DNA of 6,234 nt. It comes from JBHIBR01 sp046759145 [NCBI: Nitrospinota bacterium] (GTDB taxonomy: Bacteria; UBA8248). The stretch is from the NCBI GenBank assembly GCA_046759145.1, contig JBHIBR010000118.1, positions 1-6,234 of the forward strand, in the 5' to 3' direction. Shown in pieces: positions 1,428 through 5,800 of the stretch (positions within the stretch are counted from its first letter, which is position 1; every line of letters starts with the position of its first letter). The notes beneath the pieces were generated by a model. The model was not told where the DNA came from. It worked only from the letters and a program-made list of their open reading frames with translations, and did no database searches. The translations under genes and the position numbers were made by a program.

Positions 1428-1994
1428 TCAAATGGCCCCCCCTGCCACCGACTCCCTTCGCTCCAGCCAGCGGACCAGGGCCCGGGCCAGGCCTTCCTCC
1501 CTCACGCCCACCACTGCCACGGGGCGCTTCCCCAGGAGCTCTCCCAGGCGCTTTTTGGAGAAACCCCGGAGAACCCGATGCGGGGGGCCGCCCCTTTCAG
1601 CCAATTTGGCTACACTGCCCCCCGCGTCCTCGCTCCAGAGGATCAGCAGGCAGGAGGGAAAACTCTCCTCCACCGCGCTCCTGCCCCTCACAAGGCGCCC
1701 GGCACGCCGGGCCATCCCGAGCATGCCTCCCACCTTGCGGTCGATCGCCTCCGCCAGGCTCGCCGCGAAGGCGCTCGCTTCGGGGGGCCTCACAGGGGCC
1801 CGAAAACCCCTCTCCAGGGCCCTGGGCTTGAGGGCCGCCTCCAGGCATCGGCGCGCGAAGCAGGCGTAGGCCCCCCTCCCCGGCAGCCTGTGCTCGAGGT
1901 CGGGGGCCACCTCCCCACCGGGGCTCCGCGCCAGCCGCAGAAGCTCTGCCTGCTCCCTCACCTCCCGGCAACCCACGCAGGTCCGCAGGGGCAT
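1428..1994 (-). CDS. ylxR: YlxR (DUF448) domain fused to an L7Ae/YlxQ-like RNA-binding domain
   Basis: A 188-residue two-domain protein. Residues 1-65 are a YlxR domain: RTCVGCRE near the start, the PGRGAY signature at 38-43, and four cysteines (6, 9, 45, 50) in two close pairs. Residues about 83-178 resemble the L7Ae/YlxQ ribosomal-protein-like fold: GGMLGMARRAGRLVRG at 89-104, then CLLILWSEDA and a KKRLGELLGKRPVAVVGV stretch typical of the K-turn-binding family. In Bacillus these are two separate genes, ylxR and ylxQ, between nusA and infB; here one reading frame carries both in the same order. Function is inferred as RNA or nucleic-acid binding linked to ribosome or transcription regulation; no precise role can be read from sequence. 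The start is five nucleotides after the nusA stop with only a weak purine stretch upstream, which suggests translational coupling. The stop TGA is followed by a 78-nt gap before infB. Confidence 0.9.
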   Translation of the reverse strand: MPLRTCVGCREVREQAELLRLARSPGGEVAPDLEHRLPGRGAYACFARRCLEAALKPRALERGFRAPVRPPEASAFAASLAEAIDRKVGGMLGMARRAGRLVRGRSAVEESFPSCLLILWSEDAGGSVAKLAERGGPPHRVLRGFSKKRLGELLGKRPVAVVGVREEGLARALVRWLERRESVAGGAI

Positions 1995-1999
1995 GGGCC

Positions 2000-3415
2000 C
2001 TAGCCCTGGGAGGGCTCGTCCCCCTCCCCCTCTCCCGCCGTGGCTGCCCCCTCCCCGGCGGCCTCGGGCCCATCCAGCGGCGGCCCCGAGCTCGCCGCCG
2101 CCGGGGCTTCCACCTCAGCCCCCTCCTCCGCGGCAGCAACCCCGGCACGGGCAGCCTTCGCCGCCAGGTGGGCCGCCGCCGCCTCCTTCAGGATGGCCGC
2201 CCGTTTGGGGCCGATCCCGGGCACCGCCGTAAGCTCCTCGATGGTCGCCCCGACTACCTTCTCGACGAAGCTGAAGCCGTGCGCGCTCAGGAGGGAGGCC
2301 ATCTTCTCACCCACCACGGAGAGCTCCTCGATGTCGGGCCGGGGGGCGAAGGTCGCGGCGAAGGTCGTGGCGGCGACGCGCTTGCGGTACTCGCCCTCGC
2401 CCACAAGGTCGATCCTCCAGCCGAGGAGCTTCGCGGCGAGGCGCACGTTCTGGCCCTGCTTGCCGATGGCGAGGGAGAGCTGGTCGTCGGCCACGATGAC
2501 CTCCATCCGCTGCTCTTCCTCGTGGAGGACGATGTGCTGTACCCGGGCGGGGCTGAGGGCGTTGGCGGCGTAAGTGTTGAGGTCGGAAGACCAGGAGATG
2601 ATGTCCACCTTCTCGCCATGGAGCTCCAGCACCACCGCCTGTACGCGGCTCCCCCGCGTGCCCACGCACGCCCCCACCGGGTCCACGTCCGAGTCGTGGG
2701 AGACCACGGCGACTTTGGCCCGGCCGCTGGGCTCGCGGACGCAGGCCTTGATCTCCACGATCCCCTCGTAGATCTCGGGCACCTCCATGGCGAAGAGCTT
2801 CATCAGGAGACCCGGGTGGGTCCGGGAGAGGATGATCTGCGGCCCGCGGCTCACCTCCCGCACCTCGAGGATGTAGGCACGGATGCGGTCGGCCCGCTTG
2901 TAGACCTCCCGGAAGATCTGCTCGCGGCGGGGCAGCAGGGCTTCGGCGCGCCCGACGTCCACGTAGATGTTGCCCCGCTCCACCTGGGAGACCACCCCCA
3001 TCACCAGCTCCCCGACCCGGTCCTTGAACTCGTTGTAGATGTTGGCCCGCTCGGCTTCGCGCACCCGCTGGAGGATGACCTGCTTGGCCGTCTGGGCGGC
3101 GATGCGCCCCAGGTCGTCCAGCGCGAGGGGGAGCCGCACCTCCTGGCCTTCGGTTGCGTCGGGGTTGAGCTGCCGGGCCTCTTCGAGGGAGATCTGGAGC
3201 TCGGGGTCCTCCACCTGGGATACGGCGGTCTTCTTGCAATAGAGGGTGAGGTCGCCCGTCTCCCCGTCCACCTCCGCCTCCACGTTGTCGCCCAGGCCGT
3301 AGTGCCGCTTGGAGGCCGACACGATGGCAGCCCGCACCGCCTCGAGGAGGACCTCCCGCGGGACGGCCCGCTCGCGCTCGATCTGGTTCAGGATGTAGAG
3401 CAGCTCTTGATTCAA
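2000..3415 (-). CDS. nusA: Transcription termination/antitermination factor NusA (471 aa, TTG start)
   Basis: RNA-polymerase-associated factor that controls pausing, intrinsic termination and antitermination. Domains seen: N-terminal polymerase-binding domain (1-125, opening NQELLYILNQIERER), S1 domain (about 134-198), KH1 (about 228-290, GTRG at 252-255), KH2 (about 295-370, GKQG at 318-321), then a single helix-hairpin-helix acidic-repeat-like module (about 362-412, PGIGPKRA at 399-406) and an Ala/Glu/Gly-rich acidic tail (about 420-471). E. coli NusA carries two such C-terminal repeats and B. subtilis none. I chose the TTG at 3413-3415 because the next residues match the usual NusA N-terminus and a ribosome binding site lies 10 nt upstream. 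A longer frame from another TTG at 3454 would add 13 residues lying inside rimP and is less likely. The TTG overlaps the rimP TGA (TTGA), so translation is probably coupled. Confidence 0.95.
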   Translation of the reverse strand: MNQELLYILNQIERERAVPREVLLEAVRAAIVSASKRHYGLGDNVEAEVDGETGDLTLYCKKTAVSQVEDPELQISLEEARQLNPDATEGQEVRLPLALDDLGRIAAQTAKQVILQRVREAERANIYNEFKDRVGELVMGVVSQVERGNIYVDVGRAEALLPRREQIFREVYKRADRIRAYILEVREVSRGPQIILSRTHPGLLMKLFAMEVPEIYEGIVEIKACVREPSGRAKVAVVSHDSDVDPVGACVGTRGSRVQAVVLELHGEKVDIISWSSDLNTYAANALSPARVQHIVLHEEEQRMEVIVADDQLSLAIGKQGQNVRLAAKLLGWRIDLVGEGEYRKRVAATTFAATFAPRPDIEELSVVGEKMASLLSAHGFSFVEKVVGATIEELTAVPGIGPKRAAILKEAAAAHLAAKAARAGVAAAEEGAEVEAPAAASSGPPLDGPEAAGEGAATAGEGEGDEPSQG

Positions 3416-3951
3416 GGCGTCGCGTCTCCCTTCCGCCCGAAGACCTTCTTCCAATCCACCTCCAGCCGCGCCTTGGCCACATCCTCCAGGGGCAGCCGCA
3501 CCGTGCGGGGCACCCCAAGCGGCTCGCCGCTTGGGGACCCCGTGCGGTCGGGCTCCACCTCCAGGAGGATCTCCCCCCCCTCCAGCCCCCGGAGGGTCCC
3601 CCGAAAGTTCCTCTGGCCCCCCACGGGGACCCTCACCTCAACGCGCACGCGCTCGCCCGCAAAGCGCTCGAAGTCCCGCGCGCGGCGAAGCGGCCGGGCC
3701 AGGCCGGGGGAGGAGACCTCCAGGAGGTAGGAGGAGGCGATGGGGTCCTCCACATCCAGGAGCTTGTCGAGCTGGGAGCTCACCCGCGCGCAATCGGCGT
3801 GGCTCACCCCTCCGGGCTTGTCCACGTAGATGCGCAGCACGCGGCGGCCGCGGTCGATGCCGAACTCCACCTCCACCACCTCCATCCCCTCCTCGGCCGC
3901 GATGGGCTCGCTCAAGGCCGTGACTTTCTGGATGAGGGCCGACTTATCCAT
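3412..3951 (-). CDS. rimP: Ribosome maturation factor RimP (179 aa, with an inserted loop)
   Basis: Cytoplasmic factor needed for maturation of the 30S subunit; first gene of the rimP-nusA-ylxR-infB block. Seen: N-terminal alpha/beta domain (about 1-85) with EVVEVEF, RRVLRIYVDKPGGV and DCARVSSQLDKLLDVEDP, the family signature LEVSSPGLARPL at 77-88, and a C-terminal SH3-like domain (about 90-166) ending in LEDVAKARLEV. At 179 residues it is longer than E. coli RimP (about 150). About 13 extra residues (136-149) are encoded by a palindrome with flanking direct repeats, and there is a short basic C-terminal extension. The ATG at 3951 gives an N-terminus like that of relatives; upstream GTG codons in frame lie in or before the terminator hairpin and are rejected. 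An AGGAG directly abuts the ATG with no spacer, which is unusual. The stop overlaps the nusA start. Confidence 0.95.
   Translation of the reverse strand: MDKSALIQKVTALSEPIAAEEGMEVVEVEFGIDRGRRVLRIYVDKPGGVSHADCARVSSQLDKLLDVEDPIASSYLLEVSSPGLARPLRRARDFERFAGERVRVEVRVPVGGQRNFRGTLRGLEGGEILLEVEPDRTGSPSGEPLGVPRTVRLPLEDVAKARLEVDWKKVFGRKGDATP
3426..3434 (-). promoter_or_regulatory. Ribosome binding site that decides the nusA start
   Basis: GGAAGGGAG on the minus strand, inside the end of rimP, ends 10 nt before the TTG at 3415. It supports that TTG over the upstream TTG at 3454. Confidence 0.6.
3501..3547. repeat. Palindromic element flanked by 8-bp direct repeats inside rimP
   Basis: Bases 3513-3522 (CCCCAAGCGG) and 3527-3536 (CCGCTTGGGG) are perfect reverse complements around a 4-nt centre. 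An identical octamer CCGTGCGG lies on each side, at 3501-3508 and 3540-3547. The octamers are offset by 39 nt, exactly 13 codons, so removing one octamer and the palindrome keeps frame and restores a RimP loop of ordinary length (PDRTVRLPLED). Pairing continues in the outer arms in DNA and partly in the mRNA (3507-3510 with 3538-3541, and further), partly because the octamer is itself nearly palindromic. The layout resembles a small palindromic insertion with target-site duplication. A chance hairpin in GC-rich coding sequence is the alternative. The structure is seen directly; its origin is inferred. Confidence 0.7.
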
Positions 3952-3966: not shown

Positions 3967-3990
3967 AAAAAAAAGTGGGCACAAGCCCAC
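3967..3990 (-). terminator. Intrinsic terminator between proS and rimP
   Basis: On the minus strand GTGGGC, loop TTGT, GCCCAC form a perfect 6-bp G/C-rich stem followed immediately by eight T (bases 3974-3967). This is a textbook Rho-independent terminator for transcripts coming from ispG-proS. It lies only 15 nt before the rimP ATG, so any rimP promoter upstream of it must read through it. It may therefore serve as a leader attenuator for the nusA operon. Confidence 0.85.
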
Positions 3991-4051: not shown

Positions 4052-5800
4052 TCAGGCGGCTCCCTCGGCTCCCCCCCTTTCGGTCCTCCGGATGGCCTCC
4101 TCCACTCTATCCCGCACCGTGCGGGCCACGGCCTCCCGCGCCACCCGCTCCGCCCCCTCGGGCCCTCGCCGCCGCTCCTGCACCTCCACCTTCCCCTCGC
4201 GGAGGCCCTTGGGGCCCACCACCACTTTGTAAGGGACGCCCAGGAGGTCGGCGTCTTTGAATTTGACCCCCGCCCGCCCGTCGCGGTCGTCGTAGAGCGT
4301 CTCCACGCCCAGGGCGGTGAGCTCCCGGTAGAGAGACTCCGCCGCCTCCCTCGTGGGGGCGTCGGCTTGGTTGATGGGGATGAGGTAGGCGTGGTAGGGG
4401 GCGATGGGGGCGGGCCAGATGATGCCCTCCGCGTCGTGGTTCTGCTCGATGGCGGCCGCCACCGTGCGGCCGATCCCGATCCCGTAGCAGCCCATGACGA
4501 TGAGCCGCCCCTCCCCCTTCTCATCGAGGTAGGTCGCCCCCAGGGCCCGGCTGTACTTCTCCCCCAGCTTGAACACGTGCCCCACTTCGATGCCCCGCCG
4601 CACGCCCAGGGGCTCGCGGCAGCGGGGGCATGGATCCCCCTCCCGGGCAAGGGAGAGGTCGGCGAAGCGCTCGACCTTGAAATCCTTCCCCTCCTCCGCC
4701 CCGGCGTAGTGGTAATCCGTCTCGTTGGCCCCCACCACCAGGCCACCCCGCCCCCGCAGGGAGTGGTCCGCCACCAGGGGGAGGGAGAGCCCCACCGGCC
4801 CCGCGAAGCCCACCTCCGCCCCGGTGAGGCGCTCGACGGCGGGGCCGTCGGCGAGGGTGAGCTCGTTGGCCCCCAGGAAGTTTTTGAGCTTCACCTCGTT
4901 GAGGGCGCGGTCGCCGGGCACGAGCACAGCGGTGGCGCCCCCGTCGACGAAGTAGATGAGCGTCTTGGCGAGCCTTGCCGGGGGGACCCCGAGGAAGGCG
5001 CTCACCTCCTCGATGGTGCGCGCCCCGGGGGTGTGGACCCTCTCGAGCCTCTGTCCGTCCAAGGCATCCCCACCCCCGGACTCACACACCGGGGTCTTCT
5101 CCACGTTGGCCGCGTAGCCGCACTTGCCGCACACGGTGATGGCCTCTTCGCCCGTGTCGGCCAGCACCATGAACTCGTGCGAGAAGCTCCCCCCGATGGC
5201 GCCCGGGTCTGCCTCCACGGCGGCGAAGCCCAGCCCGCAGCGGCGGAAGATGGCCGAGTAGGCGTCGAACATCTGGCGGTAGCTCTCCTCCGCCCCCGCC
5301 TCGTCCCGGTCGAAGCTGTAAGCGTCCTTCATCAGGAACTCGCGCCCCCGCATGACGCCGAAGCGGGGGCGGACCTCGTCGCGGAATTTCGTCTGGATCT
5401 GGTAGAGGTTGAGGGGGAGGTCCCGGTAGGAGCGCACCTCGCGGCGCACCAGGTCGGTGATGACCTCCTCGTGGGTAGGCCCGAGGCAGAACTGGCGCTC
5501 GTGGCGGTCCTTAAGGCGCATGAGCTCCTTGCCGTAGACCTGCCAGCGGCCGCTCTCCATCCAGAGCTCGGCCGGGCTCAGCACGGGCAGGGAGACCTCC
5601 TGGGCACCGTGGCGGTCCATCTCCTCGCGGACGATGTTTTCCACCTTGCGCTGCACCCGCAGGCCCAGGGGGAGGACGGAGTAGATGCCCGCCGCCAGCT
5701 TGCGGATCACGGCCGCCCGCACCATCAGCCGGTGGCTCACCACCTCTGCCTCGGCGGGCGCCTCCTTCAGCGTGGGCAGGAAGGCCCGGCTCACGCGCAT
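4052..5800 (-). CDS. proS: Prolyl-tRNA synthetase, bacterial type with inserted editing domain (582 aa)
   Basis: Class II aminoacyl-tRNA synthetase that attaches proline to tRNA-Pro. Seen: N-terminal [20 protein letters not shown], motif 1 region with [18 protein letters not shown] (44-61), the proline-pocket segment GPTHEEVIT (107-115), motif 2 spanning 139-163 ([20 protein letters not shown] and onward), and motif 3 [17 protein letters not shown] (437-453). The anticodon-binding domain covers about 465-560. Between motifs 2 and 3 lies the YbaK-like insertion (about 255-380) with LAKTLIY and its lysine at 279, which removes mischarged Ala-tRNA-Pro in the family. CGKC (224-227) and CPRC (391-394) flank the insertion and could bind zinc. 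I chose the ATG at 5800 because it fits the family N-terminus and has GGGGGAG 7 nt upstream. A GTG at 5830 overlapping the ispG stop would add ten residues. It probably shares a transcript with ispG and ends at the terminator downstream. Confidence 0.97.

What the first reader, a model, noticed from the sequence alone, without database searches (positions are those of the whole stretch)
3501..3547. In-frame palindromic insertion with 8-bp direct repeats inside rimP
A perfect 10-bp inverted repeat around a 4-nt centre is bracketed by identical octamers CCGTGCGG whose offset is 39 nt (13 codons). Deleting one octamer plus the palindrome leaves PDRTVRLPLED, a loop of normal RimP length, and brings the protein to about 166 residues. 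That is the footprint expected of a small palindromic element that inserted with target-site duplication and is translated as a surface loop, comparable in principle to the palindromic elements known inside Rickettsia proteins. Alternatives are slippage-mediated duplication, or a chance hairpin in a GC-rich gene.
Basis: partly seen in the sequence, partly recalled or inferred. Interest (0 to 1): 0.6.

Follow-up and report, generated by a model that had tools for sequence, protein, structure and literature searches.

The report
Hairpin insertion inside a ribosome-assembly gene
A ribosome-assembly gene in an unidentified GC-rich bacterium carries 13 extra codons that form a DNA hairpin bracketed by a duplicated 8-base sequence; it looks like a genuine small insertion tolerated in a floppy protein loop, but nothing yet shows that it is a mobile or repeated element.

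Summary
A protein-level test supports an insertion. Where the window's RimP has 20 residues, 111 of 116 distinct relatives have 6-7, 121 of 143 in a wider set, and 30 of the 30 best-scoring RimPs held. Removing 13 codons leaves 7. The insert is predicted as a low-confidence coil between two strands of the C-terminal domain. The palindrome alone is unremarkable (53 of 300 shuffles); palindrome plus flanking octamers occurred in 0 of 300. The same loop is long without such a palindrome in 16 of 30 Nitrospirota-type loci, so length alone proves little; the match between octamer offset and excess length is the stronger point. No host genome is held and no relative reached is close enough for a DNA-level empty site. 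The exact hairpin was absent from 395 distant genomes, viral contigs and the rest of the window. Verdict: probably a one-off 39-bp insertion with 8-bp duplication; mobility unproven; modest interest.

The parts
3415..3951 (-). rimP coding sequence, 179 codons from ATG (stop at 3412-3414)
   Evidence: Pfam RimP_N and DUF150_C; NCBIfam RimP models match, below their curated cut-offs; AlphaFold model matches solved RimPs 7afi_X, 8bh7_A, 1ib8, 5gl6_A
3501..3508 (.). first octamer CCGTGCGG, candidate target-site duplication
   Evidence: sequence; scored
3509..3539 (.). 31-nt inserted segment, almost wholly self-complementary; with one octamer it adds 13 codons
   Evidence: sequence; relatives lack about 13 residues here
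3513..3536 (.). perfect 10-bp inverted repeat with 4-nt centre
3540..3547 (.). second octamer CCGTGCGG, candidate target-site duplication
   Evidence: sequence; scored
3496..3508 (.). small palindrome CCGCAC-C-GTGCGG at the insertion point; its right arm is the end of the first octamer
   Evidence: sequence

Best explanation
A 39-bp segment, made of a 31-bp palindrome plus one copy of an 8-bp target sequence, was inserted in frame into rimP between two strands of the C-terminal (Sm/SH3-like) domain. The ancestral loop was about 7 residues long. The insert is translated as RTGSPSGEPLGVP (or an equivalent 13-residue cut), a Pro/Gly/Ser-rich flexible loop that RimP tolerates. The clean 8-bp duplication abutting a segment whose two ends are inverted copies most resembles a transposition-type event: either a very small palindromic element, or the scar left when a larger insertion sequence was lost and kept only its two terminal repeats and its target duplication. 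Shown: the anatomy, the loop excess, its match with the octamer offset, the open frame. Inferred: that it was one event, that a transposase made it, that RimP still works.
For: Loop length 20 against 6-7 in 111 of 116 and 121 of 143 distinct RimPs and in 30 of the 30 best-scoring ones; 20-13=7. The excess of 39-42 nt was derived from proteins alone and agrees with the 39-nt octamer offset read from DNA. Palindrome plus flanking octamers in 0 of 300 shuffles, octamer given palindrome in 25 of 4000. The protein sequence does not force the hairpin (1.1% of synonymous recodings). The insert's codons are somewhat atypical (rank 14 of 166 thirteen-codon windows of rimP; CCA and CTT in a gene with 92% GC3). 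Predicted coil at residues 133-148 between strands 127-132 and 149-154; mean pLDDT 66 and 61 in blocks 131-140 and 141-150, flanking blocks 97 and 95. A screen against 118 RimPs flags residues 135-148 as missing in at least 80%.
Against: No second copy found and no DNA-level empty site. The palindrome alone occurs in 53 of 300 shuffles. The octamer occurs twice more on the same strand of the window, is partly forced by the repeated residues R-T (9.6% of recodings), and is near-palindromic itself. The same loop is long without such a palindrome in 16 of 30 Nitrospirota-type loci, and four of those show direct repeats of 8-9 nt too. NusA and IF-2 of this window also carry short stretches (8 and 14 residues, in linkers) that most relatives lack, with no such hairpin, so extra residues are not peculiar to rimP. 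The feature was chosen for looking unusual.
Confidence: 0.47

Rival explanations
1. The insertion is real but was made by a replication error: at the small palindrome CCGCAC-C-GTGCGG the nascent strand folded back or switched template, producing an inverted copy and duplicating the octamer. No mobile element was involved.
For: The insertion point abuts a 6-bp perfect palindrome (3496-3508); the octamer is quasi-palindromic and the whole 47 nt folds as one hairpin; no further copy found. Short pieces of the insert (8-10 nt) recur in the window, the nearest being GCCGCTTGG at 3304-3312 and GGGGACCC at 3594-3601 (inverted) and 3625-3632, so patchwork copying is conceivable.
Against: No piece longer than 10 nt recurs in the window, and matches of 8-10 nt are to be expected at 70% GC. 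A simple slippage would copy a neighbouring sequence whole, which this does not.
Confidence: 0.33
2. No single insertion happened. RimP's loop is free to vary, it grew by ordinary small changes, and the hairpin and octamers are chance in a 70% GC gene.
For: Palindrome of this size in 53 of 300 shuffles. In a Nitrospirota-type sample the same loop has 10-27 residues in 16 of 30 loci, mostly Lys/Glu-rich, without a long palindrome. Four of those 16 (L147, L148, L158, L163) show 8-9 nt direct repeats in this stretch, though at offsets of 15-33 nt that do not match their excess lengths of 30-63 nt. The octamer occurs twice more on the same strand of the window.
Against: Palindrome plus octamers in 0 of 300 shuffles and 0.11% of recodings. 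The octamer offset equals the loop excess. None of the other 19 loops of 10 residues or more (each with 15 nt on either side) has an inverted repeat above 8 bp.
Confidence: 0.15
3. The hairpin is kept because the rimP-nusA mRNA uses it, for example as an RNase III site or pause site before nusA.
For: The mRNA strand folds at -51.5 kcal/mol, z -4.5, about 100 nt upstream of the likely nusA start; the operon is known for attenuation upstream of rimP (PMC2965389, passages).
Against: No Rfam family at gathering score, and only three hits far below gathering score at E 1.1-3.5, two miRNA families and a growth-factor IRES. No U-run follows the stem and the terminator scan does not list it. Relatives with the 6-7 residue loop have no room for it (inference).
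Confidence: 0.05

Closest known systems
Rickettsia palindromic elements (RPE) and Wolbachia palindromic elements (WPE)
   Same: A palindrome inserted in frame in a protein-coding gene and translated (PMC10969869 and PMC4224334, passages).
   Different: RPEs are about 150 bp, in ten families with 44 integrations in one species (passage); this is 31 bp plus an octamer, one known copy, in a 70% GC genome.
Repetitive extragenic palindromes (GTAG- and CGTC-tagged REPs) inside ORFs
   Same: 20-40 bp palindromes, some wholly inside ORFs and translated (PMC3733652, abstract start and passages).
   Different: No GTAG or CGTC tag on either strand within 3480-3570; not shown to be repeated. The paper's text holds no word beginning 'duplicat', while here an 8-bp duplication is the main mark.
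[quoted passage not shown]
   Same: Inverted terminal repeats directly inside a target duplication.
   Different: MITEs are given as 70-300 bp with 15-30 bp terminal repeats (PMC3733652, passage); here the two ends make up the entire insert. Scars from nearly precise excision are recalled; none of the ten papers listed (of 35 found) held that phrase.
Natural length variation of the RimP C-terminal loop (Nitrospirota-type genomes)
   Same: Same position in RimP, similar length (10-27 residues in 16 of 30 loci).
   Different: Different residues (mostly Lys/Glu/Gly), AT-rich in most, no inverted repeat above 8 bp.

Membership tests
Rickettsia/Wolbachia-type coding palindromic element | Palindrome inserted in frame without a stop | tested here: met
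   open frame; loop excess
Rickettsia/Wolbachia-type coding palindromic element | Several homologous copies in the genome | not testable with these tools
   no host genome held; no second copy in the 6.2-kb window
Rickettsia/Wolbachia-type coding palindromic element | Length about 150 bp with a conserved peptide (RPE) | tested here: not met
   31 nt plus octamer
Rickettsia/Wolbachia-type coding palindromic element | Orthologue without the insert | tested here: inconclusive
   protein level only and from distant relatives: 30 of the 30 best-scoring RimPs have a 6-7 residue loop; no DNA-level empty site
GTAG/CGTC REP | GTAG or CGTC tag at one end of the palindrome | tested here: not met
   neither tag on either strand within 3480-3570
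GTAG/CGTC REP | RAYT transposase in the genome | not testable with these tools
   no host genome held
Transposon-type insertion (MITE or insertion-sequence scar) | Direct repeat directly flanking the insert | tested here: met
   identical octamers at both edges of the 31-mer; 0 of 300 shuffles give the combination; that they are a duplication is inferred
Transposon-type insertion (MITE or insertion-sequence scar) | Terminal inverted repeats at the insert's edges | tested here: met
   GGCACCCCAAGCGG against GGTCCCCAAGCGG, apart from a one-base gap and one mismatch near the tip
Transposon-type insertion (MITE or insertion-sequence scar) | A transposase or full element with the same ends | tested here: inconclusive
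   blastn of the 47 nt gave 14 plasmid records, best E 0.2, chance level, and no phage match; host genome not available

The most novel reading that the evidence does not exclude
An uncultivated GC-rich lineage near Desulfobacterota carries an undescribed family of about 31-bp palindromes that insert with 8-bp target duplications and are tolerated in frame inside conserved housekeeping proteins, much shorter than the coding palindromes of Rickettsia.
Probability: 0.13. Interest if true: 0.6.

Novelty: new member of a known kind. Interest (0 to 1): 0.27.

Why it matters
If the hairpin proves repeated, it would extend translated palindromic insertions to a GC-rich lineage and to very short elements with target duplication, and give a simple DNA route by which protein loops gain a dozen residues in one step. 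If it is a single event, it is a tidy but ordinary example of a tolerated in-frame insertion in a variable loop of RimP.

Tried and rejected
Rejected: an intrinsic terminator in the rimP coding sequence (no U-run; not listed); an Rfam RNA; slippage copying one neighbouring sequence whole (only pieces of 8-10 nt recur in the window); homology with the 27-residue insert of a Nitrospirae-titled RimP (L058: local DNA score 21 in a gapped alignment, reached by 31 of 2000 mononucleotide shuffles; treated as chance because related loci have unrelated loops).

Led nowhere: finding the host. Searches of 6, 395, 35, 99, 60, 59, 112, 5 and 287 genomes gave at best 53% NusA over 418 residues (up to 56% over about 340), 55% RimP over 131 residues and 65% ProS. 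Searches used strict cut-offs, so they exclude close relatives only; several samples overlap. A quick tree put the window with weak support (0.74) beside L021, L037 (titled Acidobacteriota and Blastocatellia) and L027 (Bacterium HR08), while ProS and IF-2 are nearer Desulfobacterota-type genomes, so the host lineage is unresolved. blastn of 301 bp against plasmids found nothing.

Technical weaknesses: the first insertion screen was unsound, since too few ProS and IspG relatives were held to count and it did not flag rimP itself; one search replaces it and does flag rimP. Loop counts depend on the alignment: L071 and L072 count 6 and 9. In one search the 128 RimPs were reduced to 116 distinct ones, one of the 128 being cut by a locus end; one locus of 158, L112, was set aside and near-duplicates were collapsed (157 to 143). 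The output was cut.

Full report
What the window holds. The 6234-bp window is 70% GC and encodes, on the minus strand, the end of ispG, proS, rimP, nusA, a ylxR-type gene and the start of infB. The finding lies in rimP, whose coding sequence runs from ATG 3951 to 3415 (179 codons).

The observation. The stated details are right: identical octamers CCGTGCGG at 3501-3508 and 3540-3547, offset 39, and between them a 31-nt segment with a perfect 10-bp inverted repeat around CTCG. Three features were added here. The ends of the 31-nt segment are mirrored almost up to the octamers. The octamer is itself a quasi-palindrome, and the 47 nt fold as one hairpin. The first octamer is the right part of a small perfect palindrome, CCGCAC-C-GTGCGG, at 3496-3508, whose left arm is missing at the second octamer (sequence).

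Chance. The palindrome alone is not unusual for this composition: 53 of 300 dinucleotide shuffles contain one as long. The combination with a flanking octamer repeat is: 0 of 300, and 25 of 4000 when only the flanks are shuffled. The octamer occurs twice more on the same strand, at 4117 and 4462, so it is not rare here. The protein does not force the DNA: among 20,000 synonymous recodings 1.1% have arms of 10 or more, 9.6% an 8-nt repeat at offset 39, and 0.11% both. In the fetched loci (196 loci, 1.20 Mb, some overlapping), 126 comparable inverted repeats include 2 with an 8-bp flanking repeat, both T-rich; an earlier, smaller set gave 0 of 80. These numbers carry the usual caution for a feature selected by eye.

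Is it an insertion? No host genome is held and no close relative was reached, so an empty site could be tested only at the protein level. Between fixed anchor positions on the two beta strands the window has 20 residues. Of 116 distinct RimPs, 90 have 6, 21 have 7, one 8, one 11, two 12 and one 27. In a wider set of 143, which added a Nitrospirota-type sample, 121 have 6-7. All 30 of the best-scoring RimPs held have 6-7. Removing 13 codons leaves 7. A separate screen flags residues 135-148 as missing in at least 80% of 118 RimPs. The excess, 39-42 nt, comes from proteins; the octamer offset, 39 nt, comes from DNA; they agree. That agreement is the best evidence for one insertion event that duplicated the octamer.

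The counter-evidence. In the phylum of a Nitrospirae-titled genome (30 loci taken from 148 genomes, of which 107 matched), 16 loci have 10-27 residues in this loop. Those loops are mostly rich in Lys and Glu, with no inverted repeat above 8 bp; four have direct repeats of 8-9 nt, at offsets unlike their excess length. So the position tolerates growth by other routes, and loop length by itself would not prove a palindromic insertion. The screen also flags 8 residues of NusA (369-376; 164 relatives) and 14 of IF-2 (62-75; 77 relatives), both in what look like linkers; the window's only inverted repeat of 10 bp or more is the one in rimP. Nothing was flagged in ProS (24 relatives), the IspG part (13) or the ylxR-type protein (7), the last two on thin data.

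Structure. AlphaFold with the window's RimP and 41 relatives gives mean pLDDT 88.9; the insert lies in a coil at residues 133-148 (blocks at 66 and 61) between strands 127-132 and 149-154, with blocks on either side at 97 and 95. The model matches solved RimPs. [quoted passage not shown] Whether the longer loop touches the ribosome was not tested.

Other copies. The stem pattern with a free 4-nt centre is absent, as an exact match, from IMG/VR viral contigs and from 395 genomes of the best-scoring phylum, and, at up to 3 mismatches, from the rest of the window. Those genomes are distant (NusA at most 56%) and the control pattern also gave zero, so this says little about the host. blastn of the 47 nt gave only chance-level plasmid matches (14 records, best E 0.2) and none in phages. 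Pieces of 8-10 nt of the insert recur in the window, none longer.

How it most likely arose. Octamer duplication directly against a segment with mirrored ends is what a transposition event leaves. Two forms fit: a very small palindromic element, or the two end repeats of a lost insertion sequence. The second form needs no other copies. A replication error at the pre-existing palindrome is the main rival; it explains the target's shape but no full donor is seen in the window. I give 0.47 to a transposition-type insertion, 0.33 to a replication error, 0.15 to gradual growth plus chance, and 0.05 to a conserved mRNA role.

Comparison with what is known. In-frame palindromes are known from Rickettsia and Wolbachia (PMC10969869 and PMC4224334, passages), and short REP palindromes lie inside ORFs in several species (PMC3733652, abstract start and passages). 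This case shares the principle. It lacks the GTAG and CGTC tags, is far shorter than an RPE, and is not known to be repeated. A library search for papers holding both 'RimP' and 'palindromic' returned nine papers, of which I read passages of one, on transcription attenuators; the others I saw only as listings, so I make no claim that such a case is absent from print.

Verdict. Observation confirmed; insertion likely; mobile element unproven. Modest interest unless the host genome shows more copies.

Noticed in passing
window 3967-3990, minus strand: Terminator-like hairpin GTGGGC-TTGT-GCCCAC followed by eight T, between proS and rimP and shortly before the rimP start. It fits the GGGc...gCCC rimP-leader attenuator described in PMC2965389 (passages); no Rfam match was reported there.
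   Followed up: partly
window 1431-1994, minus strand: The ylxR-type gene encodes a 188-residue protein joining a YlxR/RnpM-like part with an L7Ae/YlxQ-like part. Of 53 tblastn rows among held loci the best 40 were printed, and 3 of these (L015, L071, L072) cover 160 residues or more of it.
   Followed up: partly
window 3412-3415, minus strand: The likely nusA start (TTG) overlaps the rimP stop codon (TTGA), suggesting translational coupling; inferred from the sequence and frames.
   Followed up: no
L147-L176 (phylum of a Nitrospirae-titled genome): RimP's C-terminal loop varies from 6 to 27 residues within one phylum, 16 of 30 loci having 10 or more, mostly Lys/Glu-rich: a natural hot spot of loop growth.
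   Followed up: partly
window: NusA residues 369-376 and IF-2 residues 62-75: Short stretches that at least 80% of relatives lack (164 and 77 relatives), probably variable linkers.
   Followed up: no
whole window: The host lineage is unresolved: best NusA 53% over 418 residues, best ProS 65%. Its order ispG-proS-rimP-nusA-ylxR-infB was not seen in the Desulfobacterota-titled loci, none of which gave a proS match, though several are cut short upstream.
   Followed up: partly
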